From positions 1 through 64,000 of the forward strand of contig NZ_LECT01000046.1 in assembly GCF_001027925.1 (NCBI RefSeq): DNA of 64,000 nt. Direction: 5' to 3'. How positions within the stretch are numbered: position 1 is the stretch's first letter; the number at the start of each line of letters is the position of its first letter. Shown piece by piece: positions 6,948-34,412 of the stretch. A program made the position numbers and the translations under genes. The notes below the pieces were generated by a model. The model ran no database searches. It was not told the origin of the DNA and worked only from the letters and a program-made list of their open reading frames with translations. This stretch comes from Rhodopirellula islandica. Its GTDB lineage: Bacteria > Planctomycetota > Planctomycetia > Pirellulales > Pirellulaceae.

Positions 6948-6949
6948 TC

Positions 6950-8486: not shown

Positions 8487-9719
8487 GTGACGATCGCCAT
8501 CGCTTTTTGTTGGGGTGTCTTCGTCATCGTGGCGATTCAGGCTGCGTTTTCGCTGATCTTTGTCGTGTGGATGTCGCGACGGGCGCGTTTGCCCGAACAG
8601 GCTTTCACACCCAAGGCAGCGGTCATCCTGTGTCTTCGCGGGGCGGACCCGTTTTTGAAGGAGTGCCTGCGAAGCTTGCTCGACCAGGATTACCCTGAGT
8701 TTCAGTTGCAGGTGGTCGTGGACAGTCAAGAAGATCCTTCACGAGCCGTTCTTCGCGAATTCGAATCCGACGAACGAGTGCGGGTCAGTGTCTTGCAGGA
8801 TCCACCGGAAACATGCAGCCTGAAGTGCGCCGCGATTGTTCAGGTGATCCGAGGGCTCGATCCATCGTTTGAGGTCATCGCGTTGTGTGACGCGGACACG
8901 GTTCCCCACCGGACGTGGTTGGCTGAACTGGCTGCACCGCTGCAAGACCCAACGGTGGCGGTCACAACGGGCAATCGTTGGTACCAACCTCAGGATCCAA
9001 CGGGTGCATCCTTGGTTCGATACCTTTGGAACATTCCCGCCGCCATCAACATGATCGTCTTTCGGATCGCTTGGGGTGGGAGCCTGCTGATTCGACGGCA
9101 GCTGATTGATGAAGCCGGTTTGCTGAAGAAATGGTCGCATGCATTTTGCGAGGACACGATGCTCGATCGAGTTGCGCGTCGTCAGGGGGATCGACAGATC
9201 TTCGTGCCCAACGTGATGGTCGTGAATCAGGAAACGTGCACCTTTGCTGACTTGATGAACTGGGTGCCTCGACAGTTGTTGACCGCGAAGCTTTATCATT
9301 CGAGTTGGCCAGCGACGGTCGGCTACGGGATCATCTCGTCGGCCATTCCGTTCCTCGCTGCAGTCGTTGCCGTGGTGGGATGGATGCAATCCGACTGGGA
9401 ATCGATGCGGGCCGCTTTGTTCGCGTTCATCGCCTTCGAGATTTCGAATGTGGTGTTGGTTTTGATGTGTGAAACCAGCTTTCATCGAAGTGGATCCCAC
9501 TGCGGTGCACCAACAAGTGGTTTGTCCACAGCATCGCTCGTGAAACTGCCGTTTTGGATCGTCATCAGCCAGATCGTCTCGCCGTTCTGGTTTTGCAAGT
9601 GCTTCTTCACGACCAAGGTGACTTGGCGCGGAATCGTCTATCACGTGCGTGGCGACAAGATTCAACGCGGGCCGCACACCTCGTATTCCGAGCCGGCACC
9701 GCAGTCCCGATCTCTTTGA
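8487..9719 (+). CDS. Membrane glycosyltransferase, GT2/GT21 (HpnI/ceramide glucosyltransferase-like)
   Basis: About 410 residues. GTG 8487 is chosen over the more upstream frame start because AGGAA at 8473-8477 sits at good spacing and the resulting protein opens directly with a transmembrane helix (AIAFCWGVFVIVAIQAAFSL). The catalytic region has AVILCLRGADP, an ETCSLKC segment, the D1/D2 motif ALCDADTVPHRTW, WGGSLLIRR and the acceptor-side FCEDTMLD. The usual QxxRW motif is degenerate (PRQLLTAK). Several membrane segments close the protein (SSAIPFLAAVVAVVGW and others). It probably transfers a sugar from a nucleotide donor to a lipid acceptor at the inner membrane. It is a paralogue of the protein at 13585-14859. 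It opens the biosynthetic cluster. Confidence 0.82.
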   Translation: MTIAIAFCWGVFVIVAIQAAFSLIFVVWMSRRARLPEQAFTPKAAVILCLRGADPFLKECLRSLLDQDYPEFQLQVVVDSQEDPSRAVLREFESDERVRVSVLQDPPETCSLKCAAIVQVIRGLDPSFEVIALCDADTVPHRTWLAELAAPLQDPTVAVTTGNRWYQPQDPTGASLVRYLWNIPAAINMIVFRIAWGGSLLIRRQLIDEAGLLKKWSHAFCEDTMLDRVARRQGDRQIFVPNVMVVNQETCTFADLMNWVPRQLLTAKLYHSSWPATVGYGIISSAIPFLAAVVAVVGWMQSDWESMRAALFAFIAFEISNVVLVLMCETSFHRSGSHCGAPTSGLSTASLVKLPFWIVISQIVSPFWFCKCFFTTKVTWRGIVYHVRGDKIQRGPHTSYSEPAPQSRSL

Positions 9720-9919
9720 TCGACCAGGAAAATTGGGTGCGTTGGCGATCGCCTTTTGCCTGCTCCATTCTGGGCAATGCGTGTCAGCCGGGTGACTTTG
9801 CGGGTTAGGTGTTTCGTTTGGGACGTGCCGGTATTGCTGTCAGGGTCGGCCTACAACTCCGATAAACGTTCAGGTCCGACAATCTCAAAGCATGCATCCG
9901 AGGACTCAGCGAACCACGA

Positions 9920-11833
9920 ATGCGTACTTCGCGATCATTCGAATTGACTCACCAAGCGATCGCATCGCTGCTGATCGCGTTGGTGACCAGCAGTTTCCCG
10001 GGGTGCCGGACGGCGGACATGCGTGCGCCACAGCAACCGGGGATGACGCCTTCGGATTGGTCCGCGATTTCGCTAGAGAAGCCCGTTGGGCAACCCGCCA
10101 CTGGGCAGTCCAACCAACCGCCTGAGATCGCGACGGTTTCGCATCTCGAATCAGTCGTGCAGCGATCGCCACCAACCGCCGACGAGTTTAATCAACTGAC
10201 GCCTTGGCATTTGTCGTTGGACGAAGCGATTCAGTTGGCGCTCGGAAACAGCCAGGTCATTCGCGACCAAGGCGGTCGAGTTTTGTCGTACCCGGACATG
10301 GTGCGAACCACGTTGGATCCGGCGGTGCTTCGCAACGATCCGAATCTGGGGCTCGACGCAAGCTTGTCTGCTTTTGACACCCAGTTCCAATCCAGTTTTG
10401 TTTGGAACGGCGACGGCAACTCAGTCAATTCCGCGTTCTCAAACGGCCAATTTGGCGTCTTTTCCCAGCCCGAGACGCTGGCGAGATTGGGTGTCGGCCG
10501 CATTCTGCATTCGGGAACGCAGGTGTCGATCGGCAGCATCGGTGGCTATGACGAGGATCTGGCCGGTGGGCTGTATGCGGCTTACGGAGCAGAAGTTCGG
10601 CACCCGCTGATGCGAGGGTCGGGAACCGAGATCAACGAGATCGCGGGCCCTTTGGCCAAACCCGGTGTGTACCGAGGCATTCGCATCGCCCAGATTGATC
10701 ACCAGCAGGTCAGCCTCGGAGTCGAACAGGCCGTCTCTGAATTGGTGCGAGATGTGTCGATCGTGTATTGGGAGTTGTTCTTCGCCTATCAAGATCTCGA
10801 GGCCAAGCGGGTTGCCATGCAGAACACGCGGCAAGCGTGGCAATTGGAGCAGCAACGCGTCGAACAACGAGTCAGCCCGCCCGATGTCGAAGCGTTGGCG
10901 AGGCAGCAGTTCTATTCTGCTGAGGCCGCGGTTCGAAATGCAATCTGTGGCACGGTCCCGGGGCAAACCGGGGTCTACAACGTTGAGCTCAAACTGCGAA
11001 CGTTGCTGGCGCTTCCAGCTTGCGACGACCGGCTGATCCAACCCATCGGACCTCCGCTGCAGGCACCGATCCGGTTTGATTGGCATGAAAGTGATGCGTT
11101 GGCGCAAGGCAGCCGAATCGAGCTTCGAAAACAACAGGCGATCATCGCCAAGCGTGTGCTCGAAATCAAAGCGGCGAAGAATTTGCAACGGCCCCAGTTG
11201 GATTTCATCGGGCAGTATCGACGACTGGCTGACGACCCGACCAATGACACCGAACTGTTCGGCAGTGCGTTGCAAGGTTGGCAGGTGGGAGTCGATTACA
11301 GTCGGCCGGTGGCGAACCGACGAGAGAACGCGGCGGTTCGGCATGCCCAACTTCAATTGCAGCGAGAGCGAGCGATTGCAGAGGAACAACGCCGACAAAT
11401 CTCGGCACAGCTTCGCACCACATTCATTGACCTGGATCGCGCCTATGGCACCATGAACTCGATGGCAAAGAGTCGCGAAGCGTCACAGATCCGGTTGGCT
11501 GCTCAGTCGCAACGGCATGCCGAAGGCGAAATTCAAGTGGAAGACGTGTTGGAAGCCCAGATCCGTGCCACCAAAGCGGAGACCGAGTTTCAACGCAGTG
11601 TGGTCGACTACAACCTCGCATTCATCAAGGTCCACCACGCTCGGGGCACCTTGTTGCAAGCGATGGGAGTGGGTTTTGGTCAGCCAACCTACGACGAATG
11701 TCGATTCGCGTTGAACTCAGCGTCTGTGTTCGCCCGGCCTGAGAAACTCGACAACAACATGACTGGCACTCGGATCGCCAGTCCATCCGCGACGCAGCGA
11801 AGAGCAATGCCGCAAACGGGAACGTTTCGTTGA
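9920..11833 (+). CDS. TolC-like outer-membrane efflux lipoprotein
   Basis: A 637-residue outer-membrane channel subunit. The N-terminus has a signal peptide with a possible lipobox (SSFPGC, Cys29). Long coiled-coil stretches typical of the OEP family are seen around AVSELVRDVSIVYWELFFAY and IAEEQRRQISAQLRTTFIDL. The protein is longer than E. coli TolC because of an extended N-terminal part and a proline-rich segment. It converges with the MacA-like adaptor gene across a 147-base gap that holds a hairpin repeat. Together with the adaptor and the MacB at 30795-32849 it would complete a tripartite exporter. An alternative is that it serves an RND pump, but the neighbouring adaptor makes the MacAB assignment more likely. 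Confidence 0.85.
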   Translation: MRTSRSFELTHQAIASLLIALVTSSFPGCRTADMRAPQQPGMTPSDWSAISLEKPVGQPATGQSNQPPEIATVSHLESVVQRSPPTADEFNQLTPWHLSLDEAIQLALGNSQVIRDQGGRVLSYPDMVRTTLDPAVLRNDPNLGLDASLSAFDTQFQSSFVWNGDGNSVNSAFSNGQFGVFSQPETLARLGVGRILHSGTQVSIGSIGGYDEDLAGGLYAAYGAEVRHPLMRGSGTEINEIAGPLAKPGVYRGIRIAQIDHQQVSLGVEQAVSELVRDVSIVYWELFFAYQDLEAKRVAMQNTRQAWQLEQQRVEQRVSPPDVEALARQQFYSAEAAVRNAICGTVPGQTGVYNVELKLRTLLALPACDDRLIQPIGPPLQAPIRFDWHESDALAQGSRIELRKQQAIIAKRVLEIKAAKNLQRPQLDFIGQYRRLADDPTNDTELFGSALQGWQVGVDYSRPVANRRENAAVRHAQLQLQRERAIAEEQRRQISAQLRTTFIDLDRAYGTMNSMAKSREASQIRLAAQSQRHAEGEIQVEDVLEAQIRATKAETEFQRSVVDYNLAFIKVHHARGTLLQAMGVGFGQPTYDECRFALNSASVFARPEKLDNNMTGTRIASPSATQRRAMPQTGTFR

Positions 11834-11861
11834 CACTTGTCGCGGACGTTTGTGATCAAGC

Positions 11862-11968
11862 GATCCGTCTAAGCAGGTGCGGGGAGGGTAGGGAACAACC
11901 ACGTGGGCCGTTTGGGCGTTCGCCCCGGTTGCGTGAGGGAACCGGGGCTAACGCCAAGCGGCTCACAT
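11862..11968. repeat. REP-like palindromic repeat, copy A; possible bidirectional terminator
   Basis: Located between the convergent TolC-like and MacA-like genes. The arms 11903-11930 and 11940-11966 are near-perfect inverted repeats (outer CCGTTTGGGCG facing CGCCAAGCGG; inner CCCCGGTT facing AACCGGGG) that form a strong GC-rich hairpin with a 9-base loop. The left flank (AAGCAGGT) matches copy B at 46.7 kb. It has no T-run, so its role as a terminator is inferred from position only. Confidence 0.7.
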
Positions 11969-11980
11969 ACTCAATGGCGC

Positions 11981-13243
11981 TTACCGAAGTGTTTTCACTT
12001 TCGGAATGATTCTGGCCAGCGTGGTGCGTTTGACTTCGCCAACGACCACGGGTGAATGGTTGTCCAATCCGGTTCCAATCACTTCGGTCTGCACGCCGTC
12101 GTCGATACCGACGAGAACCGAGATCGCTCGAACTTTGCCGTCTTGCGCGGGGACCCATATGTAGGCGGTGTCGCCTTTGTTGGGGCCGTTGGATTCGTCA
12201 CTCGGAGCGATCAAATCGGAGGCAATGGTTCGTTCCATCTGTTCCGATTCTGGCCACCACTGAAGAGCGCCCGTGGGCACCAGCCAAGCTTGTTCACGCT
12301 TGGTGATTTCAAATTCGACGTCCGTGGTCATGTGTGGCAAAAGATTCAAATCGGTTTGATCAATCGCCACGATCACGTCGTAGGTCACGAAGTTGCCGTG
12401 CATCCTGGCGTTGAGCAAGATCTCTTTCACGTGGCCCGTCATCACTTGGTCGCGATGGGCGTCAACGGTGAAGGTAACAGGTTGGCCTCGTTGGACTTTG
12501 CCGATGTCGCTTTCGCTCACGGATGCCCGGATTTGCATTTGGTCCAGGTCCTTCGCCAATAGAAAGAGTCCCGGATGACCAACGCTGACGTATTGGCCCA
12601 GGTTGGCGCGTCGGTCGATCACGATGCCGTCGATGGGGGATCGGACGTTGGTGTTCTCCAGGCTCACCTTGGCTTGATGAACTTCGGCTTCGGCTTCCTC
12701 CACTTTGGCTTTGCCAACCGCAAGCATTGCCGTCGCCATTTCATTGGCGGTCACGATCTCGTCGTAGACGCTTTGCGCGTTGGTCGATCGAAGGCGGTTG
12801 GCTCGATCAAGGTTTCGTTGCGATTGTTGAAACTGTGCCTCCAGCCGAACCAAGTCGGCCGTGGCCAATCGGTAAGCGGCATTGGCCTTTTCCAAAGCAA
12901 TCTCGTATTGCTGCGTGTCCAGTTGGAAGAGCACGGTGCCTTCGGCAACACGTGAGCCAACACCGATGGGTTTGTTGGGATCGCGCGAGTCCATGCCAAA
13001 GCGAACAATCTTCCCGGCCACATCGGGGCCCACTTGGACGACTTCGTCGGGTTCGATGGTCCCGGTGGTGCCGACCGTGATGACCAGGTCTCGTCGCTCG
13101 ACATTGACGGTGCGTAGTTCCGGCAATTCGTTGCGTTGACTGAACAGACGCCATCCGATCGCTGCCACAAGCAGGCAGCCAGTGGCAAGCGTGCCGATCA
13201 ACAGACGGGACGACAGCGAGTGTTTTCTAGCGGGGTGACTCAA
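11981..13243 (-). CDS. macA: MacA/HlyD-type periplasmic adaptor subunit
   Basis: A 420-residue membrane fusion protein. It has an N-terminal membrane anchor (LLIGTLATGCLLVAAIGWRLF), then a biotinyl-lipoyl-like half (GTTGTIEPDEVVQVGPDVAG) and a long coiled coil (YRLATADLVRLEAQFQQSQR through EAEAEVHQAKVSLE). The second lipoyl half is VRSPIDGIVIDRRANLGQYV. Beta-barrel and membrane-proximal domains follow (GQPVTFTVDA, DVEFEITKREQAWLVP). The order matches MacA and PvdR. It would link the MacB protein at 30795-32849 to the TolC-like channel. It lies 17 kb from macB, on the opposite strand, with GT and acyl genes between them, which is unusual for this operon type. Confidence 0.88.
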   Translation of the reverse strand: MSHPARKHSLSSRLLIGTLATGCLLVAAIGWRLFSQRNELPELRTVNVERRDLVITVGTTGTIEPDEVVQVGPDVAGKIVRFGMDSRDPNKPIGVGSRVAEGTVLFQLDTQQYEIALEKANAAYRLATADLVRLEAQFQQSQRNLDRANRLRSTNAQSVYDEIVTANEMATAMLAVGKAKVEEAEAEVHQAKVSLENTNVRSPIDGIVIDRRANLGQYVSVGHPGLFLLAKDLDQMQIRASVSESDIGKVQRGQPVTFTVDAHRDQVMTGHVKEILLNARMHGNFVTYDVIVAIDQTDLNLLPHMTTDVEFEITKREQAWLVPTGALQWWPESEQMERTIASDLIAPSDESNGPNKGDTAYIWVPAQDGKVRAISVLVGIDDGVQTEVIGTGLDNHSPVVVGEVKRTTLARIIPKVKTLR

Positions 13244-13584
13244 GCGGTCGTTCCTTGCCTCGACAGGACTTTTGTTTCGTCCGTCAATGATGTTTGTCGC
13301 ACCGTTGACGCCAGTGCCATTGAAGTCTTGGATCGATCACCAATGCATGGACCTATTCCATTGGCATCCCTCCGTTTAGCAAAGTCGGTCCAGTGAACCA
13401 ATAGCATTCGGGGGCCTGAATGGCTCTCGGCATGCAAAAAACGAACGAATGAGCGTGAAAAAGGCTTGGTCGAGTCGCGGTTGCGTTCGCCGCCAAAGTT
13501 GACCTCGCCACGGTGTTTGCGTAGCTTGCTGCCGGTCGTTCTTAAAATGATTCGCCGATTGTGGCCTCACTTCCAAATGTTCGC
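13244..13584. other. Divergent intergenic region between macA and the second GT21-like gene
   Basis: A 341-base gap with divergent genes, so promoters of both must lie here. One candidate promoter is listed separately (13499-13527). No hairpin repeat or small reading frame of clear merit was seen. Confidence 0.6.
13499..13527 (+). promoter_or_regulatory. Candidate sigma70-type promoter for the GT2 gene
   Basis: TTGACC (13499-13504) and TAGCTT (13522-13527) are separated by 17 bases and lie about 55 bases upstream of the start at 13585. The -10 box is poor, so this is only a candidate. Confidence 0.3.
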
Positions 13585-14859
13585 ATGACTCTCCTTCACC
13601 TAGCGACATTTGCGTTTTGGGCACTCATCGGATTTGCTGTGGTCAATGCACTGTGCACAACGTTCACGCTGGTGGCACTGTTTCGGCACCGCCGTGAGAG
13701 GTCCGATGACAGGGAACTGCCACGGGTTGCCATTTTGTTGTGCTTGCGGGGTGCCGATCCTCAATTGGCGGGTGGCCTGCAGCGGTTGATGAATCAGCAG
13801 TACCCTGACTACGAAATTTTTATCGTCATTGATTCTGAGGCCGATCCCGCTTGGGGAGTGGTGAAACAGGGCGTTGATGACACGGGAGGCAAGTCCGCCG
13901 CGTGCCGGGTTCACATTTCGACGCTTCGCCAGCGACTGGAGACGTGCAGTTTGAAATGCAGTTCGTTGGTCCAGCTTCTGGATCAGATCGATGATTCGTT
14001 TGAGGTGGTTGTGCTTGCCGATTCTGATCTGGAAAGCCATCCCACTTGGCTGCGTGAGTTGGTGGCTCCGCTGGATGACCCTCGCGTGGGTGCGGCTTTT
14101 GGAAATCGATGGTTTCTTCCAACCGTTGGCTGGATGGGATCGCTCGTGCGTCAGGTTTGCAACGCGATCGGCGTCGTCACGATGCATCTCGGGCAAATTC
14201 CGTGGGGCGGATCTTTGGCGATCCGGGCGTCGGTGGTGAAAGAGAGCGGCTTGCGAGAGACACTGACCCGATCCATCGTCGACGATGGACCTGTCCGAGT
14301 GGCGTTGAGAGAACAGGGACTCAAGCTTCAATTTGTCCCCTCGTTGTTGATGGCCAATCGAGAAGACTGCGATTTGCGATTTGCTCACAACTTTCTCACT
14401 CGCCAATTGAAGTGGACGCAGACTTACATGAGCAGCCAATGGCCGATCATGTTGGTTTACACGTTGGGTGTGCTTGGCATTTATATGGTCACCTTGGTGT
14501 TGGCCATTGTTTGTACGCTCGTGGGATACCACGAGGAGGCATTTGGGTTTGTGGTCGGCTCCGCCATCTACAGCGGGACGGTCATGACGCTCTGGTTTTT
14601 GTTGGACGTCGCTGCCCGCCGAATCATCCGAGCACAGGGCGAGCCGGTTCCAGGATTCATTGGCGTCCAATTGTTGAAGCTTCCCATTGCGATGCTACTG
14701 GCGGTTGTCATTCATGTTTCCGCCATGGTTCGTGCGACGGTCCTTCGACGGGTGATCTGGCGGGGTGTGACCTACGAGGTGCTCGGGCCCAAAGAAGTCT
14801 CTTTGTTGAATGAAGAGGCGATGGAGACATCTCTGGAATCAGCCAACGTGTCACTTTGA
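13585..14859 (+). CDS. Membrane glycosyltransferase, GT2/GT21 (HpnI/ceramide glucosyltransferase-like)
   Basis: About 424 residues from ATG 13585; a TTG 24 bases upstream is also possible. The layout copies the gene at 8487-9719: one N-terminal membrane helix (LATFAFWALIGFAVVNALCT), then AILLCLRGADP, LETCSLKC, a DSD motif (VVLADSDLESHPTWL), PWGGSLAIR, IVDDGPVRVALR and TRQLKW. The last retains the QxxRW-like aromatic that the other copy has lost. Three or more C-terminal membrane helices follow. Both proteins likely glycosylate a lipid at the inner membrane. Placing the two paralogues on either side of the TolC/MacA pair suggests a segmental duplication. Confidence 0.82.
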   Translation: MTLLHLATFAFWALIGFAVVNALCTTFTLVALFRHRRERSDDRELPRVAILLCLRGADPQLAGGLQRLMNQQYPDYEIFIVIDSEADPAWGVVKQGVDDTGGKSAACRVHISTLRQRLETCSLKCSSLVQLLDQIDDSFEVVVLADSDLESHPTWLRELVAPLDDPRVGAAFGNRWFLPTVGWMGSLVRQVCNAIGVVTMHLGQIPWGGSLAIRASVVKESGLRETLTRSIVDDGPVRVALREQGLKLQFVPSLLMANREDCDLRFAHNFLTRQLKWTQTYMSSQWPIMLVYTLGVLGIYMVTLVLAIVCTLVGYHEEAFGFVVGSAIYSGTVMTLWFLLDVAARRIIRAQGEPVPGFIGVQLLKLPIAMLLAVVIHVSAMVRATVLRRVIWRGVTYEVLGPKEVSLLNEEAMETSLESANVSL

Positions 14860-14867
14860 AACTCGTG

Positions 14868-16289
14868 TCACTTTGAGTTTTTGAGCTCCATCCAGAGCGA
14901 CTTGATCGTGCGGACGATGCCCGGCCAAGCCTTGGGATGCCAACCGAAACGCATCGTTCGCAACAACGCTCGCAAAGCAATTCGCCAGTCGCCGGAATAC
15001 AACGCACGACCGTACAGTGTCACGTAAAGTTCAGCGGTTCGATGCTGTTCGGTTGATTGGAAGTGCCCGGTCGACATCGCGTCGTTCCAAAATCGATCGA
15101 CCGTTTGGACTGGTGTAGGCACCATGCCGGTTCGCAGGTAGAAGCCGACTTGCTCGAGGAGTTGATCGGGATCGAGGGGCGGAGAGTGTTTGAGTTGTGA
15201 CGCGGCGTTTGGACTTTTTTCAGAAAGGTAGTGCCGCCAAACGGAAAGCCACCAGTGCAGCGAAGTGGTCAGGTGGTTTGAGGCAGACAGATCTCCGTCA
15301 CCAAGCGTCTCAAAGGCACCAATCATTGTTCGGACGTCTTCCGGATCTGAACCTGCCGCTTCCGTCCAGCTTGTGAAGTGATACAAGCAATCGTGAGCGG
15401 TGCGTCGAAGATCGTCCTTTGAATAGGAACGAGTCTGTTGAAGTTGCTGCGCGGCAGCCTCTGCGTTTCCAATGTGGAACAGGTGCCAGGCCAGCCACAT
15501 GCTGGAGTAGTATCGCACTGAACGTTCGTTGCGTTTGATCGCGGAAGGGACCAAGGGATTCGCATAGAACTTGTTCAGCACCATCGTGGCGTATTTGACC
15601 TGGCCCAAACCGTTGCGGCGAATGGTGCTGAAAGGGTGCCGGCGGTAGCAGAGGGTGGCGGCCTTTTGCCATTGGAAGGTGCAGCCAGCCAGAGACAGTC
15701 GTAGCATCAAATCGACATCTTGAGACTGCAGCAGTTCGGGATCAAAGCCGCCCACCTTTTGTAGCCACTCGCGGCGAAACAGCATCGCCCCGAGCTTGGC
15801 AGGTTTGAAAACCAACCAAGTGTTCAGATCGAGTTCAGGAGCATCGACCCAAGGCTCAATCACCTTGGTCACGGCGCCCTCTGCGTCCGTGATCTTCCAC
15901 CCGCTGTGCACGGCGCCCAGTTCCGGATCTGCATCGAGGATCTCGGTTTGTCGGGCAAACTTTCCCGGCAGAAACCAATCGTCTGCGTCCAAGAAGGCCA
16001 CGTACTCACCGGTGGTCTCACGCAAGCCGACATTTCGAGCGATGGCCGATCCTGCATTGGATTGCCGAACGATTTCAATGCGATCCGAAAATTCTGCGAG
16101 CACTTCGCCGGTTGCATCGGTCGACCCATCATCGACCACGATGATCTCGGTGTTGGGGGCGTCCTGGTCAAACACGCTTTGCAATGCCTGCTCAATGAAG
16201 GCGGCATTGTTGAAGACCGGGATCACAACGCTGATTCGCGGCCGTGATGTGCGGGGTGAATTCAAACCGCCTTCGCTTTCGTTCGCCAT
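14868..16289 (-). CDS. Cytoplasmic glycosyltransferase, family 2
   Basis: A 473-residue GT-A protein. The N-terminal 230 residues show RISVVIPVFNNAAFIEQAL, IIVVDDGSTDAT, NAGSAIARNVGL, and the DXD block AFLDADDWFLPGKF, followed by GAVHSGW and MLFRREWLQKVGGFDPELLQ. The C-terminal half is alpha-helical without membrane segments and may be an acceptor or tether domain. It should transfer one sugar during assembly of the cluster product. It is convergent with the GT21-like gene at 13585 with an 8-base gap, and its 5' side faces the MITE-like palindrome. Confidence 0.85.
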   Translation of the reverse strand: MANESEGGLNSPRTSRPRISVVIPVFNNAAFIEQALQSVFDQDAPNTEIIVVDDGSTDATGEVLAEFSDRIEIVRQSNAGSAIARNVGLRETTGEYVAFLDADDWFLPGKFARQTEILDADPELGAVHSGWKITDAEGAVTKVIEPWVDAPELDLNTWLVFKPAKLGAMLFRREWLQKVGGFDPELLQSQDVDLMLRLSLAGCTFQWQKAATLCYRRHPFSTIRRNGLGQVKYATMVLNKFYANPLVPSAIKRNERSVRYYSSMWLAWHLFHIGNAEAAAQQLQQTRSYSKDDLRRTAHDCLYHFTSWTEAAGSDPEDVRTMIGAFETLGDGDLSASNHLTTSLHWWLSVWRHYLSEKSPNAASQLKHSPPLDPDQLLEQVGFYLRTGMVPTPVQTVDRFWNDAMSTGHFQSTEQHRTAELYVTLYGRALYSGDWRIALRALLRTMRFGWHPKAWPGIVRTIKSLWMELKNSK

Positions 16290-17630: not shown

Positions 17631-17682
17631 ACCTAAACCACGACTTGGTCGTCTCTCTATTTCATTCACCGACGCTTCGCTG

Positions 17683-20242: not shown

Positions 20243-20260
20243 AAAATTCCCAGCCCAGTG

Positions 20261-22365: not shown

Positions 22366-22368
22366 TCA

Positions 22369-25699: not shown

Positions 25700-25781
25700 G
25701 AAAACCACAGCAGTGTCAACGCTCGACTCGCCGCATCTTCCCTTGGTCGATCCGGCCGACCCTTTCATGGAAAGAAAATTG

Positions 25782-26861: not shown

Positions 26862-26954
26862 TCGATCATTGCCGACGATGGATGAACAGACTGTTTGAGA
26901 AAGCATCTCGTCAAGTTTTTAACGGATCCCAGCCACCTTCCAATCATTTACATC

Positions 26955-28151
26955 GTGACTGCACAAGTAAACGACCGCACCCAACGACGAATCTTGATCG
27001 ACGGCACGAAGTTGGCCGATTCTGCGTCCGATGGAATTCGTCGGTTTGTCTCTGGCCTCCTGGGGGCGATGCGATCCGTCGCAGTTCAGCATCCTGAGTG
27101 GGCGGTGGATGTTCATGTCGGTTCACGAATCATCCCACTCGCTGAGATCGATTCGTGGCTGACGCTGCCGGAACCGCAACCGACTGGTGCAGCGCAGTTT
27201 CTTCGAGGGGCACTGAACCTGATTCGATTGCGGCACCAGATGCGGACGACGCATTACGACGTCGTTCACCAGACGATGCCGAACACCTTTGACACGTTTC
27301 GTCGTTTTCGAGGCGCTCGCTTGGTCACGGTTCATGATCTTTCCCATTTGGCATGCCCTCAGTGGCAGGCTGCGGTCAACAGCGAAAGCCTGGAACGGGG
27401 CCTGCGTGACGCCATTGAGCGAAACGCTTGGTTCAGCACGGACACGGATTTTATCCGTCAAGAAATGATCTCCCGTTGCGGTCTTTCGAACAGCGCTGTC
27501 ACCGGTGCCGGTTGCGATCGATCGCTTTTCCATTCGCAGTATTCGCAAGAGGCGAAAGATGCCGTGCGACCGAAGTATTCGTTGCCGGACGCCCCGTTTT
27601 TGCTTTCGGTTGGGACGTTGGAACCGCGAAAGAATTTGTTGGGGACGGTGCGAGCCTACCGCCGGTTGTTGGAAACGAACCCACAAACTCCGCTCGAACT
27701 GGTGATCGTTGGGAAATACGGTTGGGGCGATCTCGATGAGGTGTACGCCGCCGCGAAAGATTGCGATCGAATCCACTGGCTGGGCAGTGTTCCGGATGAG
27801 GATTTGCCTTTGATTTATTCTCAAGCGGAGGCCCTGTCGTATGTCTCGCACTACGAAGGATTTGGCTTGCCACCACTGGAGTCGATGAACTGTGGCGTGC
27901 CAGTGATTTACGGGGCAGGGACCGCGGTCGCCGAGGTTGTGGCGGACGCTGGTTGGGCGGCTGATCCCAATGACGTCGAACAGATCTGTGACTGTTTCGT
28001 TGAACTGGTCACTCAACCTGATCTTCGCGAAGAACGGTCTCGCAAGGCGATTGCACGGGCGGAGTTGTTTGATTGGCAACGCGTGGCCGAAGCGATGTGG
28101 GAGCAATACATGCTCGTCGCGGAAAGCCCTGCCTCTCGGTTGGCAGGTTGA
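26955..28151 (+). CDS. Glycosyltransferase, family 4
   Basis: About 398 residues. GTG 26955 is used; a TTG at 26895 would add 20 residues. The first half shows ILIDGTKLADSASDGIRRFV, YDVVHQTMPNTFDTFRRF and VTVHDLSHLACPQW. The second half has FLLSVGTLEPRKNLLGTVRA, ELVIVGKYGWGDLDEV and SHYEGFGLPPLESMNCGVPV, the diagnostic GT4 donor block. It is a retaining hexosyl- or mannosyl-type enzyme of the cytoplasm. Spacing to the GT32 gene is 22 bases, which suggests a shared transcript. Confidence 0.9.
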   Translation: MTAQVNDRTQRRILIDGTKLADSASDGIRRFVSGLLGAMRSVAVQHPEWAVDVHVGSRIIPLAEIDSWLTLPEPQPTGAAQFLRGALNLIRLRHQMRTTHYDVVHQTMPNTFDTFRRFRGARLVTVHDLSHLACPQWQAAVNSESLERGLRDAIERNAWFSTDTDFIRQEMISRCGLSNSAVTGAGCDRSLFHSQYSQEAKDAVRPKYSLPDAPFLLSVGTLEPRKNLLGTVRAYRRLLETNPQTPLELVIVGKYGWGDLDEVYAAAKDCDRIHWLGSVPDEDLPLIYSQAEALSYVSHYEGFGLPPLESMNCGVPVIYGAGTAVAEVVADAGWAADPNDVEQICDCFVELVTQPDLREERSRKAIARAELFDWQRVAEAMWEQYMLVAESPASRLAG

Positions 28152-28173
28152 TGCGAGTCACGATCGCAAGCCG

Positions 28174-28959
28174 ATGAGCGTTCCGAAAATCCTGCACCAA
28201 ACGTGGAAAGATGAACGCGTTCCGGATGACTTTTCGGAATGTGTCCAGTCCTGGAGGACTCACCATCCGGATTGGCAGTTTCGATTGTGGACTGACCAAA
28301 ACAACCGCGAATTGATCGCGGAAGAATACGCGTGGTTCTTGGAGACGTACGATGGCTATCCAGCGGCCATCCAACGCGCCGATGCCATTCGGTACTTCAT
28401 TCTTCATCGGTTTGGAGGCATGTATGTGGATCTGGATTTCATTTGTCGGAAGCCTCTCGATCCGTTGTTGGCCGATCAAGGCTGCGTCGTCGGGATGGAA
28501 CCACCTCAGCACTGTCGGCATCACCGAGTTCCCAATCTGTTGTGCAACGCACTGATGGCGTCGGCACCCGGACATCCTTTCTTTGAACGCGTGATCCAGC
28601 GATTGCCGGATTTCGTTGATCATGTCGAGAACAACGAACCGATTCTCAGCAGCACCGGCCCGATCATGATGTCGCGTGTCTTGAACGATTTTGAGACGCC
28701 CGAATCTGTCACGGTGCTTCCCTCTCGATTCTTGTATCCGTTGACGATGCACCAAGCGGCCCAGTACCGGTTGGCCGGGCACGTGGGCGTCGACCTTTCG
28801 GATGCGTTCGCGATTCACCTTTTCTATGGCACTTGGTGGAAGACCGATCGATGGGGTCGAAATTGGCGAGGCTACTACAAGCTGAAGTCTTTGATTCAGC
28901 GGCGTGTCAGCGGACTTTGGGCTCGCGTTTCTGCAGTGCGGGGCGGTCCACGCTCCTAA
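28174..28959 (+). CDS. Glycosyltransferase, family 32-like (DXD)
   Basis: A 261-residue protein from ATG 28174. It opens with KILHQTWKDERVPDDFSECV and carries the DXD block MYVDLDFICRKPLDPLL. AIRYFILHRFGG and HLFYGTWWKTDRW match the Gly_transf_sug domain of GT32 (OCH1-like, initiating mannosyl- or galactosyltransferases). It lies within the run of glycosyltransferases, just upstream of the export genes. The acceptor is unknown. Confidence 0.87.
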   Translation: MSVPKILHQTWKDERVPDDFSECVQSWRTHHPDWQFRLWTDQNNRELIAEEYAWFLETYDGYPAAIQRADAIRYFILHRFGGMYVDLDFICRKPLDPLLADQGCVVGMEPPQHCRHHRVPNLLCNALMASAPGHPFFERVIQRLPDFVDHVENNEPILSSTGPIMMSRVLNDFETPESVTVLPSRFLYPLTMHQAAQYRLAGHVGVDLSDAFAIHLFYGTWWKTDRWGRNWRGYYKLKSLIQRRVSGLWARVSAVRGGPRS

Positions 28960-29045
28960 CTTTTGGGAACGGATTGGGCAGAGAGACGATGCCTGCGGAG
29001 TGAGATTGGTCGACTTTTGTGGGGGGAGAGCCAATCGGATCTCAA

Positions 29046-29075
29046 TTGCGACTGAGGCTGGTTCCCTGCTATATC
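29046..29075 (+). promoter_or_regulatory. Candidate promoter for the exporter genes
   Basis: TTGCGA (29046-29051) and TATATC (29070-29075) are separated by 18 bases and precede ATG 29155 by about 80 bases. This lies in a 195-base gap, so the export genes could be transcribed separately from the sugar genes. Confidence 0.3.
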
Positions 29076-29154
29076 GAGCCGCAGCGTCTCTGCCCACGCG
29101 GCCGGAAACTTGTGTTTCCCGCATCCAGCCTGAGTTACCCAACATGCTACGTCG

Positions 29155-30798
29155 ATGAAACTGCTTCTGATCCTGCTTCGATCGTCCTGGATTTCTGGTC
29201 TGGTTTCCGGACTTTTGGGAGCGTTCAGCGGTGTGGCGAATCTCGGCTTGATCATGCTGATCCACCACGCTTTGACGGGTGACCCGTCCGAAGCGGGCTC
29301 GTTGCCGTACTTATTCGCTGGTGCGTGTGTCTTGGTCCTGGTCACTCAAGTGGCGGCCAAGTGCTTGCTTGTTCAGTTGTCCCAGGCAACAGCGGCTCGA
29401 TTGCGATACGAGCTGTGCACCAAAATCATTTCGGCTCCTTTGCCGACGTTGGAATCCGTCGGATCGCATCGGTTGTTGGCCGCTCTGATCAACGATGTCA
29501 ACGCGATCACGTCAGCCTTGTCCGCGTTCCCCGCTGCCTGCGCCAACGCGATGGTGTTGGTTTGTGGACTGGTTTACTTGGCGACACTGTCCGTGCCATT
29601 GGCGGGTGGGACGATTGTGATGGCGGGAATTGGCGTGTTCACGTTCATGACCGGTCTGCGGTTTGCCAACCGGCATCTGCGCCAGGCTCGGGAAGACCAA
29701 GATGAAGTGGTCAAGCAACTGCGAGCCATGATCGATGGCATCAAAGAACTCAAAGGCAACAACATGCGGTGCCTGGACTTTGTCTACGACGTGTTGTTAC
29801 CAGCCGACACAAAGATGCGTCACAGCCTGATCATCGGGTCGAACATTCAGGGGTTTGCCCACAGTTGGGGACGACTGTTTCTGTTCATCGGCATTGGATT
29901 GTTGCTGTTTGCTTGGCCGCAGATCGCGACCGTGTCGACCGCGACTTTGACCGGATACGTTCTGACGATTTTGTATCTGACTTATCCGCTGGATGGGATT
30001 TTGGGTTGGTTGCCAGCAATGAATGGTGCCTCGATCGCAGTTGCCAAGATTGAGAAGTTGGGTTTGATGATCGATCAGCCTGAACAACAAACCTCGCATG
30101 TCGCACCGACTCAGTTCGAATCGCTTGAGATGCGAAGCGTGACCTATCAGTACGATTCCTCCGGCGACGAATGCTTTGCACTGGGACCCGTCGATTTGAC
30201 GCTTTCGCCCGGTGAGATTTTGTTCATCGCGGGTGGCAACGGCAGCGGAAAAACAACGCTCGCGAAATTGTTGACCGGGCTTTATGTTCCCGACGCAGGT
30301 GAAGTGTGCTGGAACGGGCGGGACGTGACGGACAAAGTTCGAGCCGATTATCGCCAGCTCTTTTCGACTGTCTTTGTAGAAGGCCACCTGTTCGATCGGT
30401 TGCTGGGGATCGATGTCACACCCGGCAAGTTGGAGCATTGGATTTCTCTGTTGGGAATGGAAGAGAAGGTCGACGTGCAGACCGGTCGACTGTTGACCCA
30501 AGAACTTTCACGCGGCCAGCACAAACGTTTGGCGTTGTTGGTGGCGGCGCTCGACGATCGTCCCATCTTTGTTTTCGACGAATGGGCCGCCGAACAAGAT
30601 CCGGGATTCAAGGACGTCTTCTACCAACAGATCCTGCCGGAGCTTCGCCGGATCGGGAAAACCGTTGTCGCGATCACGCATGACGACCGCTATTTCTCTG
30701 TTGCGACGCGAGTGTTGAGGGTTGTGGATGGTCGCTTGACTCATGCGACCGAGAAAGCGGCTGATTCGTTGCACGTCATCCACAGGGACGCAGCGTGA
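29155..30798 (+). CDS. SyrD/PvdE-like ABC exporter (cyclic peptide type)
   Basis: A 547-residue half transporter. Six membrane helices occupy about 320 residues (LLILLRSSWISGLVSGLLGA, LVLVTQVAAKC, AMVLVCGLVYLATL, TIVMAGIGVFTFM and others). The ATPase domain has Walker A GGNGSGKTTLAKLL at about 359-372, LSRGQHKRLALLV as signature, and IFVFDEWAAEQDP as Walker B. The close relatives SyrD, YojI and PvdE export or transfer cyclic peptides and pyoverdine precursors across the inner membrane. The stop overlaps the macB start by four bases. It should move the finished or partly finished product across the cytoplasmic membrane. Confidence 0.88.
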   Translation: MKLLLILLRSSWISGLVSGLLGAFSGVANLGLIMLIHHALTGDPSEAGSLPYLFAGACVLVLVTQVAAKCLLVQLSQATAARLRYELCTKIISAPLPTLESVGSHRLLAALINDVNAITSALSAFPAACANAMVLVCGLVYLATLSVPLAGGTIVMAGIGVFTFMTGLRFANRHLRQAREDQDEVVKQLRAMIDGIKELKGNNMRCLDFVYDVLLPADTKMRHSLIIGSNIQGFAHSWGRLFLFIGIGLLLFAWPQIATVSTATLTGYVLTILYLTYPLDGILGWLPAMNGASIAVAKIEKLGLMIDQPEQQTSHVAPTQFESLEMRSVTYQYDSSGDECFALGPVDLTLSPGEILFIAGGNGSGKTTLAKLLTGLYVPDAGEVCWNGRDVTDKVRADYRQLFSTVFVEGHLFDRLLGIDVTPGKLEHWISLLGMEEKVDVQTGRLLTQELSRGQHKRLALLVAALDDRPIFVFDEWAAEQDPGFKDVFYQQILPELRRIGKTVVAITHDDRYFSVATRVLRVVDGRLTHATEKAADSLHVIHRDAA

Positions 30799-32849
30799 TT
30801 CAACTGCATGGCCTTCGCAAAGACTATCGGGTCGGTGATCACGATCTGCCGGTGCTCAAGGGCATCACGCTGAACATCGAAGCGGGGGAATATGTTGCGT
30901 TGATGGGATCGTCGGGTTCTGGGAAGACAACCCTGATGAACCTGCTGGGGAGTTTGGATCATCCGACCGATGGCGACTACCATCTGGCCGGGATCGATGT
31001 GTCGAGTCTGACACCGTTGGAACTCGCCGCGTTTCGAAGCCAGCATATCGGGTTTGTCTTTCAGAACTTCAACCTGCTGCCGCGTGCGACCGCGTTGGAC
31101 AACGTGATGCTGCCGACGATCTATGCGTCGGATGGAAGGTCACGGCGCGAGTGCATCGAAGACGCGACGAAGTTGTTGGAGTCCGTCGGTTTGGGAGGTC
31201 GACTGGACCACATGCCCAATCAGTTGTCGGGCGGCGAACGACAACGAATCGCGATCGCTCGAGCGTTGATGAACCGCCCCAAGCTGTTGTTGGCCGATGA
31301 GCCAACCGGGAACCTGGACACGGTCACGGAACAAGAAATTCTGGCGTTGTTTCGTCAGCTCAATCAAGAACACGGCATCACGTTGGTGGTGGTCACGCAC
31401 GATGCGGAGGTCGCTCATGAAGCGGATCGAGTCGTGCGAATGAAAGACGGGCTGGTGGCGGAGGATGTTCGGCAACGAGCGTCCACCGTCGACCGTTCGA
31501 GACTCGCGAATTCCAGATCGGAGCCCCTGAGAGAACCGGCGACCGCTTGGCCAATGGCAGCGACTTGGAATGCGGTGATCGTGGCTGTCTTGGCGCTTCG
31601 TCGCAATGCATTGCGGACCGTGTTGACGATGTTGGGGGTGATCATCGGTGTCGCCTCGGTGATTTCGACCATGGAACTGAGTGCCGGTGCTTCCACTGCG
31701 ATTGAAGAAACGGTCGCAAGCATGGGAGCCAGCATGCTGACGATCAGTCCCGGCAAAGCGTCGAGTACTGGCGGGCGTCAGCGCCCGATCCAGATTGTTC
31801 CCGACGATGTGCTTGCGGTCGCTGAGCAATGTTCCGCAGTCAAAGTTGCGGCCCCGCTTGTGTATTCCCAAGTCCAATTGGTTCGTCAGAATCGCCGTTG
31901 GAGCCCCAATCTGGCGCTTGGCACAACGCCGCAATACTTGGCGGCGCGGAACTGGGATCAGTTGGAGATGGGAACGCCATTCACGCAGGAACAAGTTCTC
32001 GATGCGGCGAAGGTTTGCATCTTGGGAAAAACCGTCGCTCACGAATTGTTTGATTCGGAGTACCCGATCGGCGAAGAGATTCGCGTCAACGGGGTTCCGC
32101 TCCGCGTGGTTGGCGTCCTCACCGAAAAGGGCGGGGATGTGATCGGGAACGATCAAGACGACATCATCATCGGACCGTGGACGACGTTCAAACTCCGAGT
32201 GAACAGCAGCACGGGCGCGACTGCTCAGTTCAGCACCTTCGCGGATCAGATGCCACCGATGCAACTGGCATCAACCCGGCGATCGACGCAGCGAGAAGAG
32301 ATTCACCAAATCTATGTGGAGGCTGAATCGCCGGATCACGTGGAACTGGCTCGTCAGCAGATCACGCAGTTGCTTTCCCGCCGACACAATGTTGAACCCG
32401 CGGGTGCCTATCGCATCAACGACATCACCGAAGTTTCCAAAGTGGTCGGGCAAGTCGTGGGTGGTGTGTCCGCTTTGGGGCTGGTGATCGCCGGCGTCTC
32501 ACTGATGGTGGGCGGTGTGGGAATCATGAACATCATGCTGGTCTCGGTCACCGAGCGGACGCGTGAGATTGGTTTGCGGATGGCGGTCGGAGCCAATCGC
32601 AGTGCGATCCTTCGTCAGTTTCTGATCGAGGCGACCGTGTTGTGCGTGGTCGGCGGATTCCTCGGTATTTTCGCGGGCCACATGTGGTCCATGTTGGTCG
32701 GCCGGGTGATCGGGTGGCCGACTGCGATGTCGATCTGGGCGCCGATTGTTGCCGTGACCGTTGCCGCGTCAGTGGGCATCGTGTTTGGTTACTACCCAGC
32801 CCGGACGGCGTCCCGGTTGAATCCGATCGATGCGTTGCGGTACGAGTGA
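30795..32849 (+). CDS. macB: MacB-type ABC transporter (PvdT-like)
   Basis: A 684-residue protein starting with GTG 30795, overlapping the previous stop. Residues 1-235 form the ATPase: MGSSGSGKTTLMNLLG (Walker A), QLSGGERQRIAIARALM (signature) and LLADEPTGNLD (Walker B). A membrane helix (MLGVIIGVASVISTMELS) leads to a large periplasmic domain and an FtsX-type end with three helices (GGVSALGLVIAGVSLMVGGV, FLIEATVLCVVGGFLGIF, AAVTVAASVGIVFGYY-like). MacB works as a dimer with MacA and TolC and pushes substrates from the periplasm outward. Adaptor and channel genes lie upstream at 9920-13243. Confidence 0.92.
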   Translation: MIQLHGLRKDYRVGDHDLPVLKGITLNIEAGEYVALMGSSGSGKTTLMNLLGSLDHPTDGDYHLAGIDVSSLTPLELAAFRSQHIGFVFQNFNLLPRATALDNVMLPTIYASDGRSRRECIEDATKLLESVGLGGRLDHMPNQLSGGERQRIAIARALMNRPKLLLADEPTGNLDTVTEQEILALFRQLNQEHGITLVVVTHDAEVAHEADRVVRMKDGLVAEDVRQRASTVDRSRLANSRSEPLREPATAWPMAATWNAVIVAVLALRRNALRTVLTMLGVIIGVASVISTMELSAGASTAIEETVASMGASMLTISPGKASSTGGRQRPIQIVPDDVLAVAEQCSAVKVAAPLVYSQVQLVRQNRRWSPNLALGTTPQYLAARNWDQLEMGTPFTQEQVLDAAKVCILGKTVAHELFDSEYPIGEEIRVNGVPLRVVGVLTEKGGDVIGNDQDDIIIGPWTTFKLRVNSSTGATAQFSTFADQMPPMQLASTRRSTQREEIHQIYVEAESPDHVELARQQITQLLSRRHNVEPAGAYRINDITEVSKVVGQVVGGVSALGLVIAGVSLMVGGVGIMNIMLVSVTERTREIGLRMAVGANRSAILRQFLIEATVLCVVGGFLGIFAGHMWSMLVGRVIGWPTAMSIWAPIVAVTVAASVGIVFGYYPARTASRLNPIDALRYE

Positions 32850-32906
32850 TCGCGAACGATGACCGGGGTTTGCAAACGGTCGGTCACGCCTCTGCCAATG
32901 CGCTGG

Positions 32907-34412
32907 CTAGGCACACGCGACCTTGGAAAACAGCAGTCGACAGGTGTCGATTGCTTCTCGAGGGATCTTCGTGGCAGCCCAATTGCCGTCGAGGTAGTGC
33001 CCTAATTCGGTTGGGCAAAGATCTTGGTTGGTCATCAGTTTCGATAACGCACGCGAGCTCGCGCGAATGGTGAGGGTTTTGGGGCAGGGGAGTCCATGGG
33101 CAACTTCCAATCTTGCCGACCCTTGCCGACTGACCACACGCCATTGCCCACCACCAGGACCCAGGATGTTCAGGCCAAGCAATGTCTGAGGCTGCGTCTC
33201 TGTTTGCTCCGCTTCTTCCTGTTGCATGGAGGCGACGGTTGCATCCCGCAAGTAATCGACCAAGTGGTTGATGGACGCGACCCCGGGATCGCGACGCTTG
33301 CCCCATCGATCTGCCAGTCCAAACGCGAGGTAGCGATGGACCACCGTTTCGTCGATCTCTGGGCACGGAAGATCTGCGGTGAACGCAAGCAGGTTCGAGT
33401 TGTCGAACGCTGGGTCGGTGGAGTTGTAAGACTCGTACAGAGAAACGCCAGAGAAGTAGTTCCGTTCGAAGCCATTCAGCTCGTTGCTCGGGACGTCGAT
33501 GTCACCGCAGTACTGGACCCCGGTGGAGTTGAAGTACGAGCAGCAGCAGTCAATGATTTTTCGCGGCGTCAGATGAACCCGCGGAGTCAAATGGTACGTT
33601 TGTCCGTGAGCTTCCGGCGTGTCGAGAAGCCGCGACACCACGTCGGCCACCCAATCAATCGGCACGACATTGCGGCGTTCGTCTCCGGTCATGGGAAGCC
33701 GAATGGGCGTGTGCCGGACACCGTCTTGATCAGGCTCCACCATTGGTACCAGCAACGCCATCAATCGCAGGTAAGTGTGCAGCCCGTGGTAGCTGGTCGT
33801 GTGCCCGGTTTGCGAATCGCCGGAGATCACAGCGGGGCGGTAGACGGTCAGTTGATCGAGAAACGACGCTGCCCGAACAGCTTGTTCCGCTTCAAACTTG
33901 CTCTGCTCGTAGTCGTTCCGAAAGTTCTGTCCGACATCCAAGTCTGATTCATGAACCAAGTCGGTTCGGTTGCCGCAGACGTATGCGGTGGAGAGATAAT
34001 GGAAGTCTCGGATGTTCGTTTCGCGGCAGAACGCCAAGACATTCTGGGTGCCGCCCAGATTCGTTTTCCACGGGTCTCCGGAGCGATCGGATCCTTGAAA
34101 TTTCAGCACCGCGGCCCCGTGGATCATCCGGTCGCAGTTTTGGCGGACCCATTCGGTCGCACCCGCATTCAGACCAAGGTTGGGTTGGACAATGTCGCCT
34201 TCCAAGCAAACCGGGCGAGGCAGCTCACGCCCCAGTTCGGTCTCGAATCGTTGCAGGATCGCTTCAACACGTTCGTAAGCCGTCTTCTTTTTGCTGCTTC
34301 TCGCGATCACCGCGACGCGTTTGCCGCTCATCATCGCGTTGCGAAGCAGGTACTGTCCAACCAGACCAGTCGCGCTGGTCATCAAGGTGTATTGATGGTT
34401 GCCAATAACCAT
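32907..34412 (-). CDS. Thioester-reductase-like SDR with C-terminal SCP2-like extension
   Basis: About 501 residues from ATG 34412; the frame is open much further upstream but that part runs opposite to another gene region and lacks domain content. The N-terminus MTSATGLVGQYLLRN is the NAD(P)-binding loop of the NAD_binding_4 (male sterility/thioester reductase) group. NYEQSKFEAEQAV has the Tyr-x-x-x-Lys pair and FHYLSTAYVCG the catalytic Ser/Thr. The last 85 residues (LGLNILGPGGGQWRVVSRQG onward) resemble a lipid-binding sterol-carrier fold by pattern only. The family reduces acyl thioesters to aldehydes or alcohols. It faces the macB gene convergently with a 57-base gap. Confidence 0.7.
   Translation of the reverse strand: MVIGNHQYTLMTSATGLVGQYLLRNAMMSGKRVAVIARSSKKKTAYERVEAILQRFETELGRELPRPVCLEGDIVQPNLGLNAGATEWVRQNCDRMIHGAAVLKFQGSDRSGDPWKTNLGGTQNVLAFCRETNIRDFHYLSTAYVCGNRTDLVHESDLDVGQNFRNDYEQSKFEAEQAVRAASFLDQLTVYRPAVISGDSQTGHTTSYHGLHTYLRLMALLVPMVEPDQDGVRHTPIRLPMTGDERRNVVPIDWVADVVSRLLDTPEAHGQTYHLTPRVHLTPRKIIDCCCSYFNSTGVQYCGDIDVPSNELNGFERNYFSGVSLYESYNSTDPAFDNSNLLAFTADLPCPEIDETVVHRYLAFGLADRWGKRRDPGVASINHLVDYLRDATVASMQQEEAEQTETQPQTLLGLNILGPGGGQWRVVSRQGSARLEVAHGLPCPKTLTIRASSRALSKLMTNQDLCPTELGHYLDGNWAATKIPREAIDTCRLLFSKVACA

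What the first reader, a model, noticed from the sequence alone, without database searches (positions are those of the whole stretch)
8487..34412. A 26-kb export cluster with PvdE/PvdRT-OpmQ-like transporters but no NRPS
The sequence shows an SyrD/PvdE-like ABC exporter overlapping a MacB, plus a MacA-like adaptor and TolC-like channel in the same cluster. In pseudomonads this exporter set handles pyoverdine made by NRPSs. Here no adenylation, carrier or ketosynthase domain exists. Instead the region holds seven or eight glycosyltransferases, an ATP-grasp enzyme, a stand-alone HHxxxDG acyltransferase, a desaturase and a thioester-reductase-like SDR. The inference is an exported glycosylated, acylated product of a kind not clearly described.
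Basis: partly seen in the sequence, partly recalled or inferred. Interest (0 to 1): 0.85.

Follow-up and report, generated by a model that had tools for sequence, protein, structure and literature searches.

The report
Glycolipid export island lacking its synthase
A 26-kb block of genes in a marine planctomycete appears to build a sugar-decorated lipid and pump it out of the cell; related species have the same pump beside a giant lipid-making enzyme that was not found here.

Summary
PvdE-like exporter, MacA, MacB, TolC, seven clear glycosyltransferases plus a probable eighth, HHxxxDG acyltransferase, desaturase and thioester-reductase-like SDR lie at 8.4-34.5 kb. No ketosynthase, carrier or adenylation domain was found on the contig. 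The ATP-grasp call is weak.

The block is a real unit: whole in two same-genus species, absent at the same site in two others, all 19 genes under purifying selection. The exporter core recurs in five more Pirellulaceae, each time beside a ~3000-aa reducing PKS; one was read in full and ends in a thioester reductase. The window group is a PKS-less variant.

Best reading: assembly and export of a glycosylated lipid. HpnI-like lipid glycosyltransferases belong to the core. Among the 80 closest named exporter relatives, 28 of 64 cyanobacterial loci lie near HpnI-type genes, but 11 of 16 others lie near PKS/NRPS: the label 'NRPS exporter' fits one part of the family, not the other. Substrate, order of steps and product are inferred. 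Closest known: heterocyst glycolipid PKS with DevBCA-TolC.

The parts
8418..9719 (+). HpnI-like glycosyltransferase type 1 (core)
   Evidence: PF13641, PF13506; TIGR03472 97 bits, under cut-off 310; orthologues in G001, G003, G009, G025 clusters
9920..11833 (+). TolC-like outer-membrane channel (core)
   Evidence: PF02321; 50-68% identical in five other clusters
11981..13243 (-). MacA-like periplasmic adaptor (core)
   Evidence: TIGR01730 over cut-off; lies between PvdE and MacB in five relatives
13561..14859 (+). HpnI-like glycosyltransferase type 2 (core)
   Evidence: PF13506; TIGR03472 104 bits, under cut-off
14868..16289 (-). GT2 glycosyltransferase
   Evidence: PF00535
16578..17630 (+). 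possible ATP-grasp ligase (weak)
   Evidence: NCBIfam ATP-grasp E 0.003, far under cut-off; conserved in G002/G004
17548..19014 (+). stand-alone WS/DGAT-PapA-type acyltransferase; start likely about 17683
   Evidence: TIGR02946 51 bits, under cut-off, HHACCDG; homologue beside the PKS in G003, G009, G025, G083
18971..20242 (+). fatty-acid desaturase
   Evidence: PF00487, three His boxes
20261..21730 (-). GT4 glycosyltransferase, fastest evolving of the set
   Evidence: PF00534, omega 0.20-0.25
21928..22365 (+). PqqD-like protein
   Evidence: PF05402 over cut-off
22369..23433 (+). HPr-kinase-like protein with P-loop, conserved H162, K183, D201
   Evidence: profile A2 matches HPr kinase structures, E 5e-6; alone only E 0.2 to PF07475
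23430..24101 (+). GT2 glycosyltransferase
   Evidence: PF00535
23939..25699 (+). NTP_transf_5 nucleotidyltransferase-like protein; start likely near 24050
   Evidence: PF14907 132 bits
25782..26861 (+). core protein of unknown family, probably divergent GT-B
   Evidence: orthologues next to MacB in G025, G003, G009; weak GT-B signals
26895..28151 (+). GT4 glycosyltransferase
   Evidence: PF00534
27937..28959 (+). DXD-type glycosyltransferase (called GT32 here)
   Evidence: PF04488; 57% homologue beside MacB in G138
29155..30798 (+). PvdE/SyrD-type ABC exporter (core)
   Evidence: TIGR01194 over cut-off, omega 0.02-0.03
30795..32849 (+). MacB-like ABC transporter (core)
   Evidence: PF12704, PF00005, PF02687
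32907..34469 (-). thioester-reductase-like SDR (ORF runs to 34814; only this part aligns continuously in G002/G004)
   Evidence: PF07993, YxxxK, residues 116-635 conserved
8330..34561 (.). extent of the island, absent in G005 and G007
   Evidence: between the last and first bases that match the empty site in G005

Best explanation
The island encodes assembly and export of a glycosylated lipid, and is a PKS-less variant of a cluster family in Pirellulaceae. Likely order (inferred): an acyl chain from ordinary fatty-acid synthesis is desaturated and reduced by the SDR; HpnI-like GT2 enzymes put on the first sugar at the inner leaflet and the other GTs extend it; the WS/DGAT-type enzyme O-acylates it; the HPr-kinase-like and NTP_transf_5 proteins, with the PqqD-like partner, add a phosphate-linked sugar or similar group; the PvdE-type exporter flips the lipid-anchored product, and MacAB-TolC carries it through periplasm and outer membrane. 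Shown: gene content, linkage, conservation, selection, no cis megasynthase found, and its presence in relatives. Inferred: substrate, order, product.
For: Exporters, adaptor, channel and HpnI-like GTs are linked in the window group and in G001, G003, G009, G025, G083 (type 1 GT not seen in the G083 stretch). In these five the partner is a PKS; the one of G009 has KS-AT-DH-MT-ER-KR-ACP-thioester reductase in one ORF, i.e. a reduced, reductively released chain; a WS/DGAT-type acyltransferase and a sulfotransferase accompany it in 4 of 5 (all but G001). In cyanobacteria 28 of 64 exporter relatives lie near an HpnI-family GT, 17 of them within 520 bp; of ten neighbour ORFs tested, two pass the HpnI cut-off, two HpnJ and one HpnK. 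A MacAB-like pump with TolC exports heterocyst glycolipids (PMC6161253, passages); PvdE most likely moves acylated ferribactin (PMC6206403, passages). HPr kinase plus nucleotidyltransferase add phosphate then hexose in pseudomycoidin (PMC8498205, passages). No capsule-type polymerase or flippase showed in the 40 ORFs scanned.
Against: The window HpnI-like GTs score 97 and 104 bits against a cut-off of 310, so lipid acceptance is by analogy. The hpn link is cyanobacterial, mostly one clade (26 of 28 rows in a 47-row clade), and that clade is not the window's; outside cyanobacteria 11 of 16 exporter relatives lie near PKS/NRPS, so a peptide or polyketide cargo is the commoner company there. No matched control of other ABC exporters was run. 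The lipid source is unknown. The trio also sits among GT2s without the exporter.
Confidence: 0.55

Rival explanations
1. Surface polysaccharide (capsule or holdfast-like) cluster in which the ABC pumps serve another purpose.
For: Seven or eight GTs; the PqqD/HPr-kinase-like pair lies in a row of GT2 genes in G495.
Against: No capsule-type polymerase, flippase or exporter in the 40 ORFs scanned; the core in five relatives has a PKS.
Confidence: 0.17
2. Split pathway: a PKS or NRPS elsewhere in the genome makes the core and the island tailors and exports it.
For: Own genome has PKS or hybrid genes at C14, C31 and C44, and ORFs with adenylation plus carrier at C16, C25 and C29; relatives carry a PKS in cis; 11 of 16 non-cyanobacterial exporter relatives lie near PKS/NRPS.
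Against: The C14, C31 and C44 kinds have like-sized counterparts in G005 and, with a shorter frame for the C44 kind (2093 aa), in G007, which lack the island; C31 is about 36% identical to the cluster PKS. C16, C25 and C29 were not traced in the sisters.
Confidence: 0.13
3. Ribosomal peptide (RiPP) pathway: PqqD-like leader binder, HPr-kinase-like and NTP_transf_5 modifiers, possible ATP-grasp ligase, peptide-type exporter.
For: HPr kinase and nucleotidyltransferase modify phosphoglycosylated lasso peptides; the exporter also matches PRK10522 at 402 bits, under its cut-off of 604 (that this is YojI is recalled).
Against: No small ORF in the gaps shows a coding signature of its own across three species; no lasso B2 or cyclase family in the ORFs scanned. 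ORFs lying mostly inside longer genes were not tested.
Confidence: 0.08
4. Chance neighbours: a drug-efflux set beside unrelated GT genes.
For: MacAB-TolC pumps are common efflux systems (recalled).
Against: Conserved linkage, presence/absence as one block, strongest constraint on PvdE and MacB.
Confidence: 0.03

Closest known systems
Heterocyst glycolipid system (hgl PKS island with DevBCA-TolC)
   Same: PKS with thioester reductase, lipid GT, MacAB-like pump and TolC occur in the wider cluster family
   Different: No PKS found in the window; extra PvdE-type exporter, many GTs, acyltransferase, desaturase and the HPr-kinase-like trio
Pyoverdine export (PvdE, PvdRT-OpmQ)
   Same: Pairing of a SyrD/PvdE-type exporter with a MacAB-TolC-type pump
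   Different: No NRPS; no periplasmic maturation enzyme recognised in the ORFs scanned; GTs instead
hpnI/hpnJ/hpnK hopanoid head-group genes
   Same: HpnI-like GTs linked with an exporter of the same ABC subfamily
   Different: Window GTs fall well under the HpnI cut-off; only partial, weak squalene-cyclase-type matches in the genome
Lasso-peptide phosphoglycosylation (pseudomycoidin type)
   Same: HPr-kinase-like, nucleotidyltransferase and PqqD-like proteins
   Different: No precursor, B2 protease or cyclase found; trio sits among glycosyltransferases

Membership tests
Pyoverdine system | PvdE-type exporter | tested here: met
   TIGR01194 423.9 bits, cut-off 286.2; a subfamily wider than PvdE
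Pyoverdine system | NRPSs in the cluster | tested here: not met
   No PF00501/PF00550 on the contig
Pyoverdine system | MacAB-TolC-type pump | tested here: met
   Domain level only; MacB equivalog 497 bits, cut-off 966 not reached
Heterocyst glycolipid system | PKS with thioester reductase | tested here: not met
   Not found on the contig (capped list); a PKS is present in five of five other Pirellulaceae clusters
Heterocyst glycolipid system | MacAB-like pump with TolC | tested here: met
   DevBCA models themselves under cut-off
HpnI | TIGR03472 over cut-off | tested here: not met
   97 and 104 bits against 310
Phosphoglycosylated lasso peptide | HPr-kinase-like protein | tested here: met
   Profile to HPr kinase structures E 5e-6; single sequence only E 0.2 to PF07475
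Phosphoglycosylated lasso peptide | Precursor, B2 and C | tested here: not met
   that the lasso nucleotidyltransferase belongs to PF14907 is recalled
All | Identity of the exported product | not testable with these tools
   Needs chemistry

The most novel reading that the evidence does not exclude
The planctomycete and cyanobacterial branches of the so-called cyclic-peptide exporters (TIGR01194) are glycolipid flippases that take over the products of HpnI-type glycosyltransferases, and in Pirellulaceae hand them to MacAB-TolC; the window makes a new, phosphoglycosylated surface lipid whose chain comes from fatty-acid synthesis after loss of the family's PKS.
Probability: 0.24. Interest if true: 0.8.

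Novelty: new variant of a known kind. Interest (0 to 1): 0.55.

Why it matters
If right, part of an exporter family now labelled 'cyclic peptide' would carry glycolipids, and the natural presence/absence pattern among Rhodopirellula-group species would make that testable by comparing lipids. It would also join HPr-kinase-like/nucleotidyltransferase decoration, known from lasso peptides, to lipid or glycan chemistry, and give planctomycetes an outer-membrane glycolipid export route.

Tried and rejected
RiPP precursor search: small ORFs in the gaps compared with G002 and G004. Only 32792-32914 (-) changes at third positions alone over its 60 aligned bases, and these lie antisense to the end of MacB, which I take as the cause.

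Leftover of the PKS: the window SDR is 27-28% identical to the thioester-reductase domains of G083, G009 and G001, which are 47-61% identical to one another, so it is not a recent remnant.

Hopanoid substrate: PF13249 gives partial matches of at most 42 bits, over its cut-off in 5 of 6 genomes, with the island (G000, G002, G004) or without (G005, G007), none in G001; inconclusive.

Fold of 25782-26861: AlphaFold2 with three rows gave pLDDT 32.6, useless; no fold search was made. A model of the ATP-grasp candidate was never accepted.

Mosaic origin: TolC groups the window with G025/G003/G009 (95/92), MacB with G001 (96/92); long branches make this only suggestive.

Literature: searches. In the listings (titles and starts of abstracts) I saw no paper on this cluster; only open-licence papers are held. 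Passages only were read of PMC6206403, PMC11804610, PMC13190842, PMC6161253, PMC8498205 and PMC5462960.

Full report
What is there. The window is bases 1-64000 of contig C46 (124,411 bases) of a 7.43-Mb genome. G004 has the length I recall for R. baltica SH1, and G000 the size I recall for R. islandica; neither was confirmed (one search found no genome paper).

Is it a unit. tblastn places all 19 island proteins in the same order in G002 and G004, best pieces at 76-98% identity. In G005 the match to the window stops at 8329 and resumes at 34562, with 2.1 kb between; in G007 it stops at 8329 and resumes at 34576. The gap there holds one ORF of 608 (G005) or 606 aa with an SHD1 domain; a full-length homologue lies in G004, pieces in G002, and no match in the window. 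dN/dS against G002 and G004 is 0.02-0.25 for the 19 genes, lowest for PvdE and MacB; dS is 0.43-0.85, against 0.54-0.73 for three flanking genes. One stop each fell in the G002 alignments of the first HpnI-like GT and of the GT4 at 26.9 kb; in the GT4 it lies at residue 3, before the likely start, in the other it was not placed. Island G+C (56.3%) is close to the flanks (56.9%). The simplest history is old presence with loss in the G005/G007 line: flank DNA of G000 is closer to G005/G007 (89-95%) than to G002/G004 (82-85% in the larger pieces), and the island diverges from G002/G004 as the flanks do.

Relatives of the exporter core. Among 147 relatives the exporter has matches with E below 1e-100 in 13 genomes including the window's; in the genus 6 of 13 have it (G000, G001, G002, G003, G004, G009). 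In five further genomes, G001, G003 (C4), G009, G025 and G083, PvdE, MacA and MacB are neighbours, with TolC and HpnI-like GTs in the same cluster (type 1 not seen in the G083 stretch). Each has a PKS in the same cluster; the other four are 50-73% identical to that of G009. The G009 ORF carries KS, AT, DH, methyltransferase, ER, KR, ACP and a terminal NAD_binding_4 domain. G019 and G071 have exporter, MacA and MacB next to PKS/NRPS ORFs, as do two named MAG loci, L117 and L118. So, outside the window group, 9 of 9 planctomycete loci read that have the exporter with MacAB and enough contig hold a megasynthase. Undetermined: G138 (exporter split over two contig ends, with TolC, MacB and a GT32 homologue; no PKS in the 28.6 kb read, its PKS-type matches listed on other contigs) and L116 (4.5-kb contig). 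Others read: G125 and G066 have remoter exporters (39% and 31%), no MacA/MacB and no PKS seen; G107 (39%) has a megasynthase but no MacA/MacB seen. Across the phylum 10 of 392 genomes, the own one included, have an exporter match at E up to 1e-40; the surroundings of the other nine (27-40% identical) were not read.

No synthase here. The PKS query hits nothing listed on C46 but an ADH outside the island; in G002 and G004 the listed PKS-type matches nearest the locus are about 460 kb or more away (22 candidates scored per genome, capped list; NRPS domains searched only in G000). Own PKS or hybrid genes at C14, C31 and C44 have like-sized counterparts in G005, which lacks the island, so these three do not track it. 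Three smaller ORFs with adenylation and carrier domains (C16, C25, C29) were not traced.

What the exporter family keeps company with. PKS/NRPS query domains match 14 of 80 loci (10 of the 49 with 20 kb or more): 11 of the 16 others, 3 of the 64 cyanobacterial. This undercounts: L114 and L115 (R. rubra, A. aestuarii) score negative because their PKS lies beyond the 10-kb flank, and some loci are short. HpnI-family GTs match 28 of 80 with a Calothrix query, all cyanobacterial, 30 of 80 with any query, 20 of the 49 long loci; 17 of the 28 are within 520 bp of the exporter. Of ten neighbour ORFs tested against NCBIfam, two pass the HpnI cut-off, two HpnJ, one HpnK. hpnI, hpnK and hpnJ are the genes required to turn bacteriohopanetetrol into its cyclitol ether (PMC5462960, passages). 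In a tree of 88 exporters the planctomycete group with the window is separate from the cyanobacteria, and 26 of the 28 cyanobacterial hpn-linked rows fall in one clade, so these are few independent events. So the family as a whole is split: PKS/NRPS company is common outside cyanobacteria, lipid-glycosyl company within them; the Pirellulaceae clusters have both, and the window group only the second. No matched control of other ABC exporters was run.

The trio. An HPr-kinase-like match exists in 8 of 147 relatives and 16 of 392 phylum genomes at E up to 0.001, the own one included; most of the weak phylum matches were not read further. Of 13 loci read (G002 and G004 not counted) a PqqD-like gene lies beside it in 11 (misses: G345, G016 C56), with GT2 genes in 9 of these 11 (not seen on the short contigs of G197 and G235), and an NTP_transf_5 homologue in 8. 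A profile of 12 sequences hits HPr kinase structures at E 5e-6 over residues 161-214, with H162, K183 and D201 invariant. In the lasso peptide pseudomycoidin such a kinase phosphorylates serine and a nucleotidyltransferase adds hexose to the phosphate (PMC8498205, passages). By analogy the trio could put a phosphate-linked sugar on the glycolipid; this is inference. In G001 the trio, the exporters and the PKS stand in one cluster, which ties the trio to the export set in a second arrangement.

Mechanism and comparison. The heterocyst glycolipid system has PKS genes with a thioester reductase, a lipid GT and a MacAB-like DevBCA-TolC pump whose activity in vitro was highest with glycolipids (PMC11804610, PMC6161253, passages). 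The Pirellulaceae family matches this logic with a PvdE-type flippase added; PvdE itself most likely moves an acylated precursor, although transport in vitro is not shown (PMC6206403, passages). The window group keeps pump and lipid-type GTs, has no PKS that I could find, and has a desaturase, an SDR reductase, more GTs and perhaps an ATP-grasp ligase, which suggests a chain taken from fatty-acid synthesis. It works like a glycolipid exporter; it is not a member of the pyoverdine or heterocyst systems, since the synthase test fails.

Verdict. Observation confirmed; interpretation partly supported; a new variant of a known kind, with an exporter family whose label deserves a test.

Noticed in passing
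window 16402-16546: About 130-bp dispersed repeat between the GT2 and ATP-grasp genes; 22 other copies listed (capped list) in the own genome at 94-98% identity, also in G002, G005-G007 and G012 elsewhere; the G002 and G004 alignments break at this spot.
   Followed up: partly
window about 11869-11976: Second dispersed repeat of about 108 bp between TolC and MacA, many copies in G002; 62-65 bp of it match just beyond the sulfatase gene at the empty site in G005 and G007.
   Followed up: partly
L072:4480-6306 (-): SHD1-domain gene at the empty site; full-length homologue in G004 and G007, pieces in G002, none in the window.
   Followed up: partly
L121, L123, L153, L192 and others: TIGR01194-type exporters near hpnI, hpnJ, hpnK and a B12 radical-SAM/CDP-alcohol transferase pair in cyanobacteria, mostly Nostocales.
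   Followed up: partly
window 1436-8332 and 54236-60319: Sulfatase and sialate-esterase-like genes on both sides, including one 1101-aa ORF with two sulfatase stretches.
   Followed up: no
L062:2626-3483 (+): Sulfotransferase inside the PKS-type cluster of G009, with homologues in G003, G025 and G083, suggesting a sulfated product there.
   Followed up: no
G083:C1:1397793-1407098: A second PKS like the cluster type (63% in the KS piece) elsewhere in G083; its neighbours were not read.
   Followed up: no
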